A stretch of DNA of 11,145 bases from an archaeon (GTDB lineage: Archaea; Aenigmatarchaeota; Aenigmatarchaeia; GW2011-AR5; GCA-2688965): the NCBI GenBank assembly GCA_002688965.1, contig NZEE01000057.1, positions 1 through 11,145 of the forward strand, read 5' to 3'. Shown piece by piece: positions 4,955 to 9,382 of this stretch. A model generated the notes under the pieces. It was given only the letters and a program-made list of their open reading frames with translations, was not told where the DNA came from and searched no databases. Position 1 is the first letter of the stretch. Each line of letters opens with the position of its first letter. Position numbers and translations under genes: made by a program.

Positions 4955-5203
4955 ATGGAAAAATATAAAAAACAAGACAAATATGGATGGTGGGCAGCAA
5001 AACCTATAGTGAATACGAATGGGAAGAGCCCTGCATTTAAAGTTCGTTGGTGTATAGTATGCAAAACCGCATGGGAAATTGAATCCCACGGATATCGAAA
5101 AAAACAAAGAGTACTTCACTATGAAGACTTTCCTACATATGGACTAAAAAGGAAAATTTGTGATGACTGTAAAGAAAATTATTTAAAGGAGAAAAATGAG
5201 TGA
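4955..5203 (+). CDS. Small zinc-ribbon-like protein heading the ubiquitin-like operon
   Basis: An 82-aa basic protein with two CxxC knuckles, C33-IV-C36 in RWCIVCKTAWE and C69-DD-C72 in KICDDCKENY, 32 residues apart. This is a four-cysteine zinc ribbon or treble-clef arrangement. Aromatic and basic residues between them (HYEDFPTYGLKRK) fit a small zinc fold that binds nucleic acid or protein. AAGGA lies 4-5 bases before the ATG. The frame overlaps the E2-like gene by 8 bases, so the two are translationally coupled. In this place it might be an adaptor or ligase-like partner of the conjugation enzymes or a transcription regulator; neither is shown by the sequence. Confidence 0.75.
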   Translation: MEKYKKQDKYGWWAAKPIVNTNGKSPAFKVRWCIVCKTAWEIESHGYRKKQRVLHYEDFPTYGLKRKICDDCKENYLKEKNE

Positions 5204-6641
5204 AAATTTAATTGATTTGACATTTTTAAATCCTATTTTTGAAGTTTTGCCTATAGGAGATAGGGCAGAAATTTTAGGAATGCTTGAAAGTGTTAATAAT
5301 ATCAGTGAGGGTAGAACAGGTTTAGATAAACAACCTATAGGGGCATTGAAAATTCGTAAAAACTTCACATGGGGACATGATACTCGTCCTCGAATAAGAA
5401 AAATAATTGAATCTTTTAGATGGAAGAAAAAAAGAGGTTCTTTAACATCTATGTTTAATAATGAACGAATGAATAGAGATTCATATCTTGAACGTAGATT
5501 TACAAACAATGTCAAAGAAGTAGACAACAAATTAAGAACACTACGTTGGATGGGTGCACAATGGCTAGATAATGATATACAAAAAGATAAAGTTATAACA
5601 AATGCAAAAGATAAATTTCATAAAGAAATGTCTGAAGTATGTGATATCTATAATTTAAATTGTATTGAACATATAATGGATTTACCAAGATATACTGCAA
5701 AAGATGGTATTATTATTGACAGTCTTATTCCAATATTAGATTCTATAGAAAGTGTATCAGAGCAAACAAATGATATCCATTTTATAAGATTTAAAGATGA
5801 AGAAAATATTAATATTGTTTTCGATATAAAAGGTGATATGGAAATATTTCATCAGCATAACAAAGTTCCATTGCAAAGTATTCCACATGGTAAGATTATA
5901 GTTATATTAGAGTATGATTATAAATCATTTGCAAGAAAACTTTTAAATCTTGCTCATAATTCAAATAGAGATCATACTGACATGAAAATTTTCTTTAAAT
6001 CAGAGAATAATAATCCATCACTAAAGCATCCATTTATTACTGTAGGAGCAAATATTAATTGGAATATAGATAATGGAGGAACCAAATGGAATTGGCAATC
6101 AGGAAATCTTGCTGCATGTTTTGGAGATTTTAATATTAATACTTATGTTCAGAGATTTGAATTAATTAAAATGATGCATTCTCTAATAATGTGGAATAAA
6201 ATATTTCGTATTGGAATAACAAATCCTATAAATCACATTGGATATAGTTGGCATGGGATGGTAGAGAATCCAACACCTGAAATAATAAAAGCAAATGCTG
6301 CTTTCTTTCCTCATCAATGTTCAGCAATGATACGAACAAGACGTGATACGGAAAGAAATTCTGAGAAAGAAGAATTGAGAACAATTACAGAATGTCATAC
6401 TATATGTTCTCAATGTGAAGATAGATGTATAGAAGCAGAAAAGAAATATAAAACTGATTTCATGTGTAGCTTACATCCTCATCATACAGAAAGAAAGGAG
6501 ATAAAAGAGAATAATAGAATACAGGAGTTGATGGAAAATGCTGTAAAAGAAAATGAAAATCAAGAACAACAACATGAAACCGAACAGTCTATTGAAGAAG
6601 TAGAAGAAGAAATGAGAAGATGGGCTGTCGCTAATCGTTAA
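5196..6641 (+). CDS. Putative E2-like (UBC-fold) protein with Cys/His-rich tail
   Basis: A 481-aa protein. Residues 1-190 are a charged, mostly helical region of unknown kind. Residues about 195-335 alternate strands and end in a long helix; within them H278-PFI and GNLAACFGD with C308, followed by the helix TYVQRFELIKMMHSLIMW, resemble the E2 layout (strand meander, HP motif, active-site Cys, helix). The HP-to-Cys distance is about 30 residues, longer than in classical E2s, so an insertion must be assumed. Residues 375-430 hold a cluster, C400-x3-C404-x2-C407-x3-C411-x12-C424-x2-H427-x-H429-H430, that probably binds zinc. An acidic Glu/Gln-rich coiled tail ends the protein. The role is inferred largely from its E1, JAB and Ubl neighbours: C308 would carry the Ubl thioester. 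PRTRC protein B is the closest analogy I can name. The start follows AAAGGAG. Confidence 0.55.
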   Translation: MSENLIDLTFLNPIFEVLPIGDRAEILGMLESVNNISEGRTGLDKQPIGALKIRKNFTWGHDTRPRIRKIIESFRWKKKRGSLTSMFNNERMNRDSYLERRFTNNVKEVDNKLRTLRWMGAQWLDNDIQKDKVITNAKDKFHKEMSEVCDIYNLNCIEHIMDLPRYTAKDGIIIDSLIPILDSIESVSEQTNDIHFIRFKDEENINIVFDIKGDMEIFHQHNKVPLQSIPHGKIIVILEYDYKSFARKLLNLAHNSNRDHTDMKIFFKSENNNPSLKHPFITVGANINWNIDNGGTKWNWQSGNLAACFGDFNINTYVQRFELIKMMHSLIMWNKIFRIGITNPINHIGYSWHGMVENPTPEIIKANAAFFPHQCSAMIRTRRDTERNSEKEELRTITECHTICSQCEDRCIEAEKKYKTDFMCSLHPHHTERKEIKENNRIQELMENAVKENENQEQQHETEQSIEEVEEEMRRWAVANR

Positions 6642-6660
6642 CACAATAATAAGAGGTAAT

Positions 6661-7578
6661 ATGTTTTATATAGATGACAAAAACTGGCGAAAATTATTGA
6701 ATTATGCAAATTCCGCCTATAATGAGTTTAAAAGCGAGATAACAGGATATATGATACTACGTAAGGATGAAGAAGATGATTGGGAAATGAAAGATCCTAT
6801 AATTCTTAAACAAGAAGTATCAAGTGGATCTTGTGAAATAGATAAAGAAGAATCTGCAAATTACTTTGTAGATGCTTTTGATAAATATGGTGAAGATGTT
6901 CGATTTATTTGGTGGCATACTCATGGGAATATGGCAGCATTTTGGTCATCTACAGATACTAAGAATATGGAAGATCAATGCTCGAATGGATGGGCTGCCT
7001 CTTTAGTAATAAATATAAGAGGTGAATATAAATTCAGAGTAAACTTCTATGAACCGATTGAAACATATTCAGATACAGAAATCACAATTGTTAATCATAA
7101 AACTGCAAAGATTCCAAAGAATATAGTAAATGAAGTAAAAGCTAAATGTTCTAAACCTACTTATACTTACAAAAGTGTGTGGAAGAATAATTCTTATGGA
7201 AATTACAAGCAATATAACAATTGGAAACTTAGCAATCAGTTGGTGATACCTGGTACTAGTCATGAAGTATATCGTAATTTTACTGTACGTAATAATTGGT
7301 ATGAATTATATGCAGATCTTAGAGATAAACTAGATGAATATATAGAAGGTACTTTACAATGGAAAGATTTAAAATCTTGGATTGATAAAGAAAATAAAAA
7401 GAATGCCGCTCAAGGGAATGATTATTATATTCTTGAATTTGATGAAGATGATCTTCAAACAGCTATGTTAGATGATAATTCTGGATATACAGCTATGTAT
7501 GGAGTTGCTGATTATGATCAATTTATTGCTTGTAGAAATGGTGAAAGGGAAAAGGTAAATAATGAGCTCCCGTACTGA
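6661..7578 (+). CDS. JAB/JAMM metalloprotease (deubiquitinase-like)
   Basis: A 305-aa protein with the whole JAMM zinc-protease signature: E26 in SEITGYMIL, then H86-T-H88, S96 and D99 in WWHTHGNMAAFWSSTD, giving HxHx7Sx2D with the usual preceding Glu. Enzymes of this family cut isopeptide or peptide bonds after the Gly-Gly of ubiquitin-like proteins. The JAB domain covers about residues 1-155; the C-terminal half is a Tyr/Trp/Asn-rich extension of unknown role, possibly for substrate or Ubl recognition. It follows the E2-like gene by 19 bases and overlaps the E1 gene by 17. As the operon's Ubl already ends in GG, the likely job is removing Ubl from targets rather than maturing it. PRTRC protein A is the nearest named analogy. 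Confidence 0.9.
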   Translation: MFYIDDKNWRKLLNYANSAYNEFKSEITGYMILRKDEEDDWEMKDPIILKQEVSSGSCEIDKEESANYFVDAFDKYGEDVRFIWWHTHGNMAAFWSSTDTKNMEDQCSNGWAASLVINIRGEYKFRVNFYEPIETYSDTEITIVNHKTAKIPKNIVNEVKAKCSKPTYTYKSVWKNNSYGNYKQYNNWKLSNQLVIPGTSHEVYRNFTVRNNWYELYADLRDKLDEYIEGTLQWKDLKSWIDKENKKNAAQGNDYYILEFDEDDLQTAMLDDNSGYTAMYGVADYDQFIACRNGEREKVNNELPY

Positions 7579-8221
7579 AAGATTCAAAGATATCATACCT
7601 TGTATTAATAATCATCATTTTCATATTTTGGGTTGCGGAGCTATAGGTAGTTCCGCAGCTATCCAATTAGCTAGAACAGGAGCAGAAAGATTTAGTCTCT
7701 ATGATCCTGATGATGTTGGAATAGAAAATGTAGGTGTAAGTCAATATGATATGTCTCATTTAGGAATGTTAAAAGTAGATGCTTTAGAAAGAATTTTATC
7801 AACTATTTGTGATGATGTAGGAGTATTTAAATATCCTGAATTATTTGAAGTTTATAAGCCTTATAAGAATGATGTTATTATATTAGGATTTGATAATATG
7901 AAAGCAAGACTTGATGCTGTACAAGCTATCTTGTTAAATAGAGTATGTCCTAAATTAATAATTGATGGTAGAATGGGATCTGAAAGCTATCAACAATATT
8001 CATTTAATGGAAAGAATATCACAGAAAAGAATTATAGAGATTGTTGGTATTCTGATGATGATGCATCTACTGAACCTTGTACTAGAAAGGCTACATCATA
8101 TTGTTCTAATATGGCAGGAAGTTTTATGACTAATACAGTTGGTAGAGTTCTGAATAAATTAGAACATTCAAAAGAGATACTATTTCATTTCCCATCTATG
8201 ACACTAGTAACAAAGGAGTGA
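7562..8221 (+). CDS. ThiF/E1-like Ubl-activating enzyme
   Basis: A 219-aa Rossmann-type adenylating enzyme. Visible motifs are the nucleotide loop G24-CGAIG in HILGCGAIGS, the acidic D48-PDDVGIEN (D50, E55, N56), K71 in GMLKVDAL, and D111 in GFDNMKARLDAV. C173 in EPCTRKATSYC is the best candidate for the catalytic thioester cysteine, by analogy with the Cys-Thr start of E1 crossover loops. Compared with ThiF and MoeB it lacks two CxxC zinc knuckles and the Arg that usually follows the Asn of the acidic motif, so it is a minimal E1. It would adenylate the C-terminal Gly of the 67-aa Ubl encoded downstream. It overlaps the JAB gene and ends 1 base before the 57-aa gene. Confidence 0.88.
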   Translation: MSSRTERFKDIIPCINNHHFHILGCGAIGSSAAIQLARTGAERFSLYDPDDVGIENVGVSQYDMSHLGMLKVDALERILSTICDDVGVFKYPELFEVYKPYKNDVIILGFDNMKARLDAVQAILLNRVCPKLIIDGRMGSESYQQYSFNGKNITEKNYRDCWYSDDDASTEPCTRKATSYCSNMAGSFMTNTVGRVLNKLEHSKEILFHFPSMTLVTKE

Positions 8222-8222
8222 T

Positions 8223-8396
8223 ATGGAAAAATATGGAAAAGTATACAGACAAGAAAAAGCTTCTCAACGTAAAGAAGAAAGAAAGAATCGAACCCCAGAA
8301 GAACAGTTAAGGCTTTTGGACGAACGATTAGGGAAGGGCATTGGTGCCTCGAAAGAACGTAAGCGCTTAACACAAATCCTTAAGGAGGATAAATAA
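8223..8396 (+). CDS. 57-aa basic peptide between E1 and Ubl
   Basis: A short frame starting at 8223, with AAAGGAG overlapping the E1 stop four bases before the ATG, and ending in a TAATG overlap with the Ubl gene. The peptide is very rich in Lys, Arg and Glu; its second half contains RTPEEQLRLLDERLGKGIGA and then SKERKRLTQIL, likely two helices around a Gly-rich turn. The Leu-Asp-x-Arg-Leu-Gly-x-Gly-x-Gly-Ala core seems familiar from small phage proteins of unknown function. With 8 lysines visible and a place inside the conjugation operon it could be a target, an adaptor or just a neighbour; none is proven. Codon use is less AT-rich than in the E1 gene, like the Ubl gene. Confidence 0.75.
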   Translation: MEKYGKVYRQEKASQRKEERKNRTPEEQLRLLDERLGKGIGASKERKRLTQILKEDK

Positions 8397-8599
8397 TGGC
8401 TATTAATATATGGCTGATGAAAGACAGTAGAACGTTTGAAAAGACTACTGTAACATCTACAACTGTTGGTGAACTACGAAACGAGTTAGATCTTGATGGT
8501 TACACCGTAAATGTAAACAAGGTTACTGCAAGTGATGATCATGTTATTGCTGAAGATAATCGTGTTGCAGTTGTTAGAACTAATGAAAAGGGTGGATAG
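8396..8599 (+). CDS. Ubiquitin-like beta-grasp modifier ending in Gly-Gly
   Basis: A 67-aa protein with the pattern of ThiS/MoaD/ubiquitin-type beta-grasp folds: strand INIWLMK, strand EKTTVTSTT, helix VGELRNELD, strand YTVNVNKV, an acidic turn and the final strand RVAVVRT, ending NEKGG directly before the stop. The free C-terminal diglycine is the substrate signature for E1 adenylation, so no processing is needed before activation. Its neighbours encode E1, JAB and E2-like proteins, so protein conjugation is more likely than sulphur transfer. A strong AAGGAGG lies 8 bases upstream, inside the 57-aa gene, with a TAATG stop-start overlap. Less AT-biased codons suggest high expression, as expected of a modifier used in excess over its enzymes. 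PRTRC protein C is an analogue. Confidence 0.88.
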   Translation: MAINIWLMKDSRTFEKTTVTSTTVGELRNELDLDGYTVNVNKVTASDDHVIAEDNRVAVVRTNEKGG

Positions 8600-8734: not shown

Positions 8735-9382
8735 ATGAACCTCGTACACATAGCAATGAAGGATTTAAAAGATAATCCATTCAATCCACCTCAAAGAATA
8801 GATAAAAAGAGAACTTCTTATAAAGAACTTCTTACATCTTTTAAGAGTGCTGGACAAATAGAACCAATAACAATATCATCTGATAATGTTATAATAAATG
8901 GAACAAGACGTAAATCAGTAATGATTGACTTAGGAGAAAAGAGAATTTATGCAAATAAATTGAATTCTAATTCAGCTAAATTATTTGATGATATGTTTTT
9001 AGAATGCAATGTAGTAGAGAAGATTTCAGGAGCTCAATGGGCTTGGAGATATCTTCAAAAAGCACCAGTTCCTAAACTTCTTAAATTAACTTTAGATAGA
9101 TTAAAGAAGATAGGTGGTACTGCATGTATTAAAAGACTAGTAGAACAAAATAAATCTCCTATCTCATTTTATGTAGGATTGACTATGTTTAAAAATTATA
9201 CTCGTCAATTTGATAAACGGATAGCAAAGAAAGCAATATATTGGATGCTTCATGTAGAATCTGCTTATCGCATGAAATGGCTTATAAGCGAATTTGTTCC
9301 TACTCAAGTACTAATTAGTGCTGTAAAAGAAAAGAGACCAATTGTTTTAAGTAAGAAAGGTTGGGAAGTAAAAGTTCTATAG
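8735..9382 (+). CDS. ParB-like (ParB/Srx N-terminal domain) protein
   Basis: A 215-aa protein whose first 80 residues follow the ParB N-terminal pattern: the KDNPFNPPQR segment, YKELLTSFKSAGQIEPITI, then ING-T-R58-R59 with VMIDLGEKRIYAN. The GxRR box corresponds to the CTP- or nucleotide-handling motif of ParB-fold proteins. The rest is basic and helical (for example LLKLTLDRLKKIGG), probably DNA-binding, but no clear helix-turn-helix is assigned. Functions in the family include plasmid partition, CTP switches, nucleases and transcription regulation, so the role here is open. There is no ParA in the window, so partition is not supported. Its closeness to E1, JAB, Ubl and E2-like genes is the defining mix of PRTRC cassettes. 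AAAAAGGAAA is the ribosome site. Confidence 0.82.
   Translation: MNLVHIAMKDLKDNPFNPPQRIDKKRTSYKELLTSFKSAGQIEPITISSDNVIINGTRRKSVMIDLGEKRIYANKLNSNSAKLFDDMFLECNVVEKISGAQWAWRYLQKAPVPKLLKLTLDRLKKIGGTACIKRLVEQNKSPISFYVGLTMFKNYTRQFDKRIAKKAIYWMLHVESAYRMKWLISEFVPTQVLISAVKEKRPIVLSKKGWEVKVL

What the first reader, a model, noticed from the sequence alone, without database searches (positions are those of the whole stretch)
5196..8599. Phage-borne ubiquitin-like conjugation operon: E2-like, JAMM protease, E1, small peptide, Gly-Gly Ubl
Seen: complete JAMM residues (E26, H86, H88, S96, D99), a ThiF-type nucleotide loop and acidic motif with C173, a 67-aa beta-grasp protein ending in GG-stop, and an upstream protein with an HP...C pattern, all in one overlapping operon. 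Known: E1-E2-Ubl-JAB sets exist in bacteria (Bil-like and CBASS-related systems, and PRTRC cassettes). Inference: this phage can attach a Ubl to targets (its own virion, host or anti-phage proteins) and remove it again. A compact operon with every component inside a phage genome is the strongest candidate here for an undescribed system.
Basis: partly seen in the sequence, partly recalled or inferred. Interest (0 to 1): 0.95.

Follow-up and report, generated by a model that had tools for sequence, protein, structure and literature searches.

The report
Phage-encoded ubiquitin-like protein tagging operon
A bacteriophage genome fragment carries adjacent genes for a predicted ubiquitin-like tag, an enzyme of the family that activates such tags, a likely transfer enzyme and a predicted tag-removing protease, which together would let the virus label proteins reversibly, and the same gene set recurs in many other phages.

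Summary
Window 5196-8599 encodes, in order, an E2-like protein (HPF...C308), a Prok-JAB/JAMM protease (E26, H86, H88, S96, D99), a minimal ThiF-type E1 (C173), a 57-aa peptide and a 67-aa predicted beta-grasp protein ending Gly-Gly-stop. It belongs to a phage-borne Ubl-E2-JAB-E1 cassette: an IMG/VR scan gave 348 stretches encoding relatives of this E1. With an unrelated neighbour (Sak4-like annealase) as bait, 18 of 29 loci with enough upstream DNA carry all four genes and 11 carry none. Active-site residues are near-invariant: E1 Cys 80/80, JAMM H/H/S/D 74/74, E2 Cys 41/41, Ubl Gly-Gly 47/47. Of those Ubls, 27 carry 1-11 residues after Gly-Gly, implying JAMM maturation. Cultured crAss-like phages carry a divergent version. 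Of 80 non-redundant loci, 59 have an ssDNA-annealing protein gene nearby and 59 a primase-helicase gene, suggesting early/replication targets. The weakest link is the E2: no Pfam match and no E2 in the structure search; it rests on motif, predicted topology, position and profile comparison. Bil, PRTRC and CBASS membership tests fail. Chemistry and targets are untested.

The parts
5196..6641 (+). E2-like protein, 481 aa: N-terminal helical region, beta-meander, HPFI (residues 278-281, nt 6027-6038), conserved C308 (nt 6117-6119), C-terminal Cys cluster
   Evidence: P279 and C308 invariant in 41 aligned rows; H278 34/41, Y/F280 41/41; AF2 order helix, three strands, strand, HP, Cys, helices; profile-profile match to UBC at the HPN..C motif, 0/150 shuffles reach it; no Pfam match, no E2 family in its relatives and no E2 among structure-search rows
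6661..7578 (+). JAB/JAMM metalloprotease, 305 aa, predicted deconjugase and Ubl-maturing enzyme
   Evidence: Pfam PF14464 25.4 bits, cut-off 25; four-sequence profile weakly hits Rpn11 structures (best E 0.00035); H86, H88, S96, D99 74/74 and E26 72/74 (two gaps)
7562..8221 (+). Minimal E1 (ThiF-type adenylyltransferase), 219 aa, candidate catalytic C173 (nt 8078-8080)
   Evidence: Pfam PF00899 8.5e-16; four-sequence profile hits MccB, UBA5, ThiF, Cap2, BubCD structures; C173, K71, D111, R116, R137 80/80, R7 79/80
8223..8396 (+). 57-aa charged peptide between E1 and Ubl, function not assigned
   Evidence: open reading frame with a Shine-Dalgarno-like leader; no relative in the 96 loci then held and no Pfam, NCBIfam, PHROG or PADLOC family
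8396..8599 (+). Ubiquitin-like beta-grasp protein (predicted fold), 67 aa, C-terminal Gly66-Gly67 (nt 8591-8596)

Best explanation
Window 5196-8599 is a phage operon that encodes a predicted ubiquitin-like protein ending in Gly-Gly, a ThiF-type E1, a JAMM-family protease and a likely E2, predicted to attach the Ubl reversibly to proteins during infection, most likely to proteins of the early recombination-replication stage. Predicted steps: the E1 adenylates the C-terminal glycine of the Ubl with ATP and holds it as a thioester on C173; the Ubl passes to C308 of the E2-like protein, which transfers it to target amines; the JAMM protease removes it again and, in relatives whose Ubl has residues after Gly-Gly, first trims that tail. 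Shown here: the gene set, its conserved active-site residues, its all-or-none presence in 29 loci and its recurrent position near annealase and primase-helicase genes. Inferred: every chemical step, the E2 fold, and the targets.
For: Families and residues. Ubl fold and Gly-Gly: 103 of the 120 listed of 251 homologues end exactly in GG; 47/47; 20 end exactly in GG, 27 have 1-11 extra residues. E2: invariant P279 and C308 in 41 rows, order of elements as recalled for UBC, hhalign to a UBC profile whose best local alignment is the HPN..C segment (score 20.4; 150 shuffles max 19.4) and to the crAss-like gp78 family (26.9; max 17.6). Functional unit: of 29 loci found by the Sak4-like neighbour with enough upstream DNA, 18 have Ubl, E2, JAB and E1, 11 have none. 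Gene order Ubl>E2>JAB>E1 in 50 of 96 loci, E2 there counted by position. Replication context in 80 non-redundant loci: any Sak4-like or Erf annealase 59, primase-helicase 59, either 66 (clusters, named from one representative each, or by similarity to a window protein). Divergent cassette in crAss-like phages.
Against: No biochemical data. No E2 family appears among the Pfam matches of the 41 E2-like rows, and the model gave no E2 among the Foldseek and VIA rows shown, only weak matches, mostly to kinases and on residues 21-122. The marine-type E2 profiles do not detect the crAss gp78 family by hmmsearch. The hhalign match to UBC is modest (P 0.009, probability 4.4%) and short (25 columns), its UBC profile was made of close UBE2D relatives, and the shuffles came near it (19.4). 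The pattern [HF]P.[IVL] was not found within 60 residues before the Cys in 3 of 41, and the Asn of the eukaryotic HPN is Tyr or Phe in all 41. None of 80 E1s has an arginine at aligned positions 57-62, where the ATP-contacting Arg73 of MoeB should fall. The E1 is too short for a separate Cys or Ub-fold domain. 11 of 29 related loci lack the cassette, so it is dispensable. Target choice rests on gene position only.
Confidence: 0.72

Rival explanations
1. The Ubl is a sulfur carrier, as ThiS, MoaD or CysO: the E1 makes a C-terminal thiocarboxylate that feeds tRNA or cofactor thiolation, and the JAMM releases the carrier.
For: The Ubl is closest to ThiS and MoaD in profile and structure; minimal ThiF-type E1; ThiS/MoaD-like, JAB and E1 genes occur together in sulfur assimilation clusters (PMC1779556, passages).
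Against: A fourth gene with an invariant P...Cys site accompanies the three in 18 of 18 Sak4-baited loci that have them; the ten neighbour representatives scanned gave replication and recombination families or nothing informative, and no sulfur-transfer family.
Confidence: 0.1
2. The cassette is a counter-defence device: a phage copy of bacterial Ubl machinery that tags, blocks or strips host Bil, CBASS or other immune proteins.
For: Bacterial Ubl-type sets with E1, E2 and JAB parts are anti-phage systems (CBASS Cap2, ISG15-like; PMC12355090 and PMC10952713 passages); the cassette is present in some and absent from other related loci (18 of 29), as counter-defence genes often are.
Against: The E1 gives only partial matches to PADLOC E1-E2 models and the Ubl and E2 none; a complete conjugation set is more than a decoy or a protease needs; in two phage groups it lies among replication genes.
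Confidence: 0.2
3. The genes modify a small peptide rather than proteins (as MccB or other ThiF-type peptide-modifying enzymes); the 57-aa peptide would be the substrate.
For: MccB is the top hit of the E1 profile among solved structures; a 57-aa peptide lies in the operon.
Against: The 57-aa peptide has no relative in the 96 loci then held, whereas the Gly-Gly Ubl recurs; a JAMM protease is not expected there.
Confidence: 0.04

Closest known systems
BilABCD (ISG15-like anti-phage operon)
   Same: Separate Ubl, E2, JAMM and E1 genes; Ubl tails to be trimmed by the JAMM, as reported for BilA and BilC (PMC11354881 passages). The order Ubl>E2>JAB>E1 (50 of 96 loci) is the one I recall for bilA-B-C-D.
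   Different: Here one Ubl domain, not two; a 219-aa single-domain E1 without inactive adenylation or Cys domain; no CEHH motif after the E2 cysteine; carried by phages, not by hosts as defence; and in this window the Ubl gene comes last.
Operon class 6d of Iyer, Burroughs and Aravind 2006 (Ubl + JAB + E1 + E2 as separate proteins)
   Same: Same four kinds of gene as separate proteins (PMC1779556 passages).
   Different: Class 6d E2s lack the upstream histidine and have a downstream one, its JABs have an extra N-terminal domain, and a helical fifth protein is present; here the E2 has HP before the Cys and the JAB match starts at residue 18. The 6d members listed there are cellular bacteria.
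PRTRC cassette
   Same: ThiF, JAB, Ubl and E2-like genes, and in this window a ParB-N-like gene next door (definition recalled).
   Different: NCBIfam PRTRC models score far below cut-off (14.6 against 101.8 and 14.9 against 144.75 bits); a relative of the ParB-like neighbour was found in 3 of the 96 loci.
Lambdoid tail genes TAPI-TAPK (Ubl with JAB/NlpC)
   Same: A phage-encoded Ubl with a JAB protease (PMC1779556 passages).
   Different: Described there without E1 or E2, in the tail module, TAPI with an extra domain; here near replication genes with E1 and E2-like genes.
crAss001 gp79-gp76 cassette (annotated as two hypothetical proteins, metalloprotease, thiamine biosynthesis protein)
   Same: beta-grasp-related protein, E2-like protein with HSH..CLG, JAB and ThiF E1 in the order Ubl>E2>JAB>E1, next to replication genes.
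   Different: Ubl-like domain has an extension after a conserved Ser-Gly (Gly 11/11, Ser 10/11) instead of a terminal Gly-Gly; E1s 30.6-33.8% identical to the window's in the 40 rows listed; E2 related only at profile level.

Membership tests
E1 / ThiF superfamily | ThiF profile, GxGxxG loop, catalytic Lys and Asp, Cys for thioester | tested here: met
   PF00899 8.5e-16; G24, G26, D48, N56, K71, D111, C173 80/80, G29 77/80
E1 / ThiF superfamily | Arginine equivalent to MoeB Arg73 | tested here: not met
   No Arg at aligned positions 57-62 in 80 distinct sequences; MoeB residues from a PMC12355090 passage; position assigned by spacing to the Lys, not by structure
JAMM/MPN+ proteases | Glu, HxH and SxxD zinc-site residues (motif recalled) | tested here: met
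   E26 72/74 (two gaps), H86, H88, S96, D99 74/74; Prok-JAB just above cut-off
Ubiquitin-like beta-grasp modifiers | beta-grasp fold with C-terminal Gly-Gly | tested here: met
   by prediction and comparison; GG 47/47
E2 / UBC fold | UBC fold by structure comparison | tested here: inconclusive
   AF2 order of elements fits but Foldseek and VIA listed no E2; whole 481-aa model, domain not folded alone
E2 / UBC fold | HP motif followed by catalytic Cys | tested here: met
   P279 and C308 41/41, H278 34/41; that the Cys is catalytic is inferred
E2 / UBC fold | Asn of HPN | tested here: not met
   Tyr 21, Phe 20 of 41
BilABCD | E1 with inactive adenylation domain plus Cys domain; two-domain Ubl; CEHH motif in E2 | tested here: not met
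   E1 219 aa, Ubl 67 aa, residues +6, +8, +13 after C308 are I, T, F; definition from PMC11354881 passages
PRTRC | NCBIfam PRTRC models at their cut-offs | tested here: not met
   TIGR03735 14.6/101.8, TIGR03736 14.9/144.75 bits; no PRTRC hit for E2 or Ubl
CBASS Cap2/Cap3 | E1-E2 fusion with CD-NTase substrate | tested here: not met
   Separate E1 and E2-like genes; no CD-NTase among the 10 window proteins scanned with Pfam
Iyer 2006 class 6d | E2 lacking upstream His with a conserved downstream His | tested here: not met
   Upstream H278 in 34/41 and in the window; definition from PMC1779556 passages
Ubl protein conjugation systems (function) | ATP-dependent covalent Ubl-protein adducts | not testable with these tools
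   needs bench work

The most novel reading that the evidence does not exclude
Tailed phages own a virus-specific, SUMO-like tagging pathway: a Gly-Gly Ubl, made mature by a JAMM protease, is cycled on and off the phage's own recombination-replication proteins (annealase, primase-helicase and partners) to switch the replisome between states, and it evolved in viruses, since scans of cellular genomes with two E1 profiles found no relative that looks host-encoded.
Probability: 0.27. Interest if true: 0.95.

Novelty: new variant of a known kind. Interest (0 to 1): 0.83.

Why it matters
Ubiquitin-type conjugation in bacteria has been studied above all as a host weapon against phages. A complete, compact and widespread set owned by phages, with versions in cultured crAss-like phages of Bacteroides, would turn that picture round and open a direct test: does a virus of bacteria use reversible protein tagging to run its own replication? 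It also offers a minimal single-domain E1 that should work with a separate E2, of interest for the origin of the ubiquitin system.

Tried and rejected
PRTRC membership: suggested by the ParB-like neighbour, rejected on NCBIfam scores. The upstream zinc-finger ORF (4955-5203) as an E3: rejected for now; the relatives found (8 rows at E up to 1, in 8 loci) lie downstream of the E1, not before the E2. The 57-aa peptide as a component: no relatives in the 96 loci then held. Host-encoded origin: genome contigs scanned twice; with A3, 26 stretches matched a pattern and none was a relative; with A9, 1 of 5 was a relative, on a 3.7-kb contig of a Spirochaetia MAG, 87% identical to the crAss001 gp76 query, so probably phage DNA. 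These scans use one or two short patterns each and can miss relatives. Structure comparison of the E2: not informative. Plasmids: the E1 matched 197 of 72,556 records, 30 listed, four opened: a CBASS operon with Cap2 and three other ThiF contexts; two records in the 60-80% identity band were not among the rows opened. The crAss JAB matched no plasmid. A Cap2 N-terminus search of plasmids (13 records) was not used further. Prok-E2_B was not found in the crAss001 record. The window's terminase matched no phage record, nor did the window E2. Tracing the window's own contig by an exact 41-base pattern and E2 relatives by patterns from the window E2 gave nothing.
Full report
WHAT IS THERE. The window is a tailed-phage fragment: small terminase and endolysin genes on the minus strand, a long run of genes on the plus strand. 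Positions 5196-8599 hold five co-directional ORFs with Shine-Dalgarno-like leaders: a 481-aa protein, a 305-aa JAB protein, a 219-aa ThiF protein, a 57-aa peptide and a 67-aa protein ending Gly-Gly-stop. JAB/E1 overlap by 17 nt and P57/Ubl by 1 nt; the other two junctions are gaps of 19 and 1 nt. Downstream lie a ParB-N-like protein, a Sak4-like annealase and a 171-aa protein without a credible family match.

THE E2-LIKE PROTEIN is the least certain part. The alignment holds the window, two database relatives (the only two homologues found) and 38 complete ORFs chosen from the loci with an ORF ending at the JAB start (67 loci; crAss-type, truncated and most near-identical ones left out). P279 and C308 are invariant; position 278 is H in 34, F in 5, Y in 2; position 280 is Y or F in all 41 instead of the Asn of HPN; the pattern [HF]P.[IVL] stands within 60 residues before the Cys in 38 of 41. 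The AF2 model (pLDDT 75.5, but block means of 47-70 over residues 251-310, the HP-Cys loop) has helix 174-186, strands 193-199, 204-218, 227-241 and 264-269, then HPFI, C308 and helices 314-319 and 323-335, the order I recall for the UBC fold. hhalign of the core against a UBC profile (close UBE2D relatives, so shallow) scored 20.4 (P 0.009) with the HPN..C segment as its best local alignment; 150 column shuffles reached at most 19.4. Against the crAss gp78 family it scored 26.9; 150 shuffles at most 17.6. crAss gp78 against UBC gave nothing at the active site. Against: no E2 family among Pfam matches of 41 members (first 25 of 31 families shown) or of 10 crAss-type ones; no sequence-profile match to an E2 structure; no E2 among the Foldseek or VIA rows shown, which fell mostly on residues 21-122 in VIA; hmmsearch does not link the two E2 families. 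A Cys cluster follows in 31 of 41.

IT IS A UNIT. A scan of IMG/VR with the E1 profile gave 348 stretches with relatives; the best 80 were kept. Of the 96 loci then held (some duplicates, many cut by contig ends), 50 show Ubl>E2>JAB>E1, 17 E2>JAB>E1, 18 JAB>E1, 3 Ubl>JAB>E1 and 8 E1 alone; E2 here means an ORF of 200 aa or more ending at the JAB start, and the profiles miss crAss-type Ubls and some crAss-type JABs. To lessen bait bias I fetched loci by the Sak4-like neighbour instead: 74 loci, 29 with at least 4.7 kb upstream. Ubl, JAB and E1 are together in 18 and all missing in 11; an E2 is detected in 13 of the 18 with a three-sequence profile, 17 with the 41-row profile and 18 with its core, and in none of the 11. 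Fisher 3e-8 for Ubl against E1, not corrected for kinship: eight of the 18 lie on contigs also kept from the E1 scan, on which the profiles were partly trained, and two pairs look near-identical. In this window the Ubl sits at the 3' end, an order seen in none of the 96 loci.

CONTEXT. Around 80 non-redundant E1 loci (clusters named from one representative each, or by similarity to a window protein): primase-helicase 59, Sak4-like annealase 36 and 13, Erf annealase 11, any annealase 59 (58 of the 67 non-crAss loci), annealase or primase-helicase 66; two small families whose representatives have no Pfam or PHROG hit 33 and 24 (I suspect SSBs, untested); endonuclease VII 23; RusA-like resolvases 13 and 9. 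crAss001 has primase, the cassette (gp79-gp76), gp75, uracil-DNA glycosylase, resolvase and exonuclease in that order, with unassigned genes between. Two phage groups thus keep the cassette among replication-recombination genes; that is the only basis for the proposed targets.

CRASS-LIKE RELATIVES. 48 of 50,697 phage records match the E1, 43 over at least 80% of its length; 29 are named Bacteroides phages and 12 uncultured. Of four records opened, three are Steigviridae (crAss001, DAC15, cr128_1) and one is unclassified below Caudoviricetes. 45 records match the gp78 protein. gp79 N-termini are related to the Ubl family (hhalign probability 78.8, E 1.6e-5) and carry Gly in 11/11 and Ser-Gly in 10/11 after the beta-grasp-like region, followed by an extension. 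The crAss001 record calls these genes hypothetical (gp79, gp78), metalloprotease and thiamine biosynthesis protein.

NOVELTY. Ten full-text searches listed no paper on a phage-owned E1-E2-Ubl-JAB set; I saw titles and abstract starts of capped lists, and the library lacks most subscription papers and holds few preprints. Read by passages only: PMC1779556 (bacterial classes 6a-6e; phage Ubl-JAB pair in tails), PMC12355090, PMC10952713, PMC11354881. Term look-ups found no mention of ubiquitin in PMC6235969, PMC7886860 and PMC10172136. Membership tests fail for Bil, PRTRC, CBASS and class 6d; the working principle is the same. Hence: new variant of a known kind.

Noticed in passing
L017:4289-4963 (crAss001 gp79) and relatives in A8: Ubl-like domain followed by a conserved glycine (Gly 11/11, Ser-Gly 10/11) and an extension, next to a JAB gene; looks like a Ubl precursor to be cut.
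   Followed up: partly
window 5196-6641, residues 375-424: Conserved cysteine cluster (C-x2-4-C-x4-7-C in 31 of 41) downstream of the E2 core, possibly a zinc or iron-sulfur site.
   Followed up: partly
window 4955-5203: 82-aa protein with two CxxC pairs overlapping the E2 start by 8 nt; the relatives found lie downstream of the E1 in other loci.
   Followed up: partly
window 8735-9382: ParB N-terminal-domain-like protein directly after the Ubl; relatives in 3 of 96 loci.
   Followed up: partly
E1 family, residues 56-62 (NVGVSQY; crAss N.SGQLY): No arginine where MoeB has the ATP-contacting Arg73, in 80 of 80 viral E1s; an invariant R137 might compensate.
   Followed up: partly
L101: 3.7-kb contig in a Spirochaetia MAG encodes a protein 87% identical to crAss001 gp76, probably phage DNA binned with a bacterium.
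   Followed up: no
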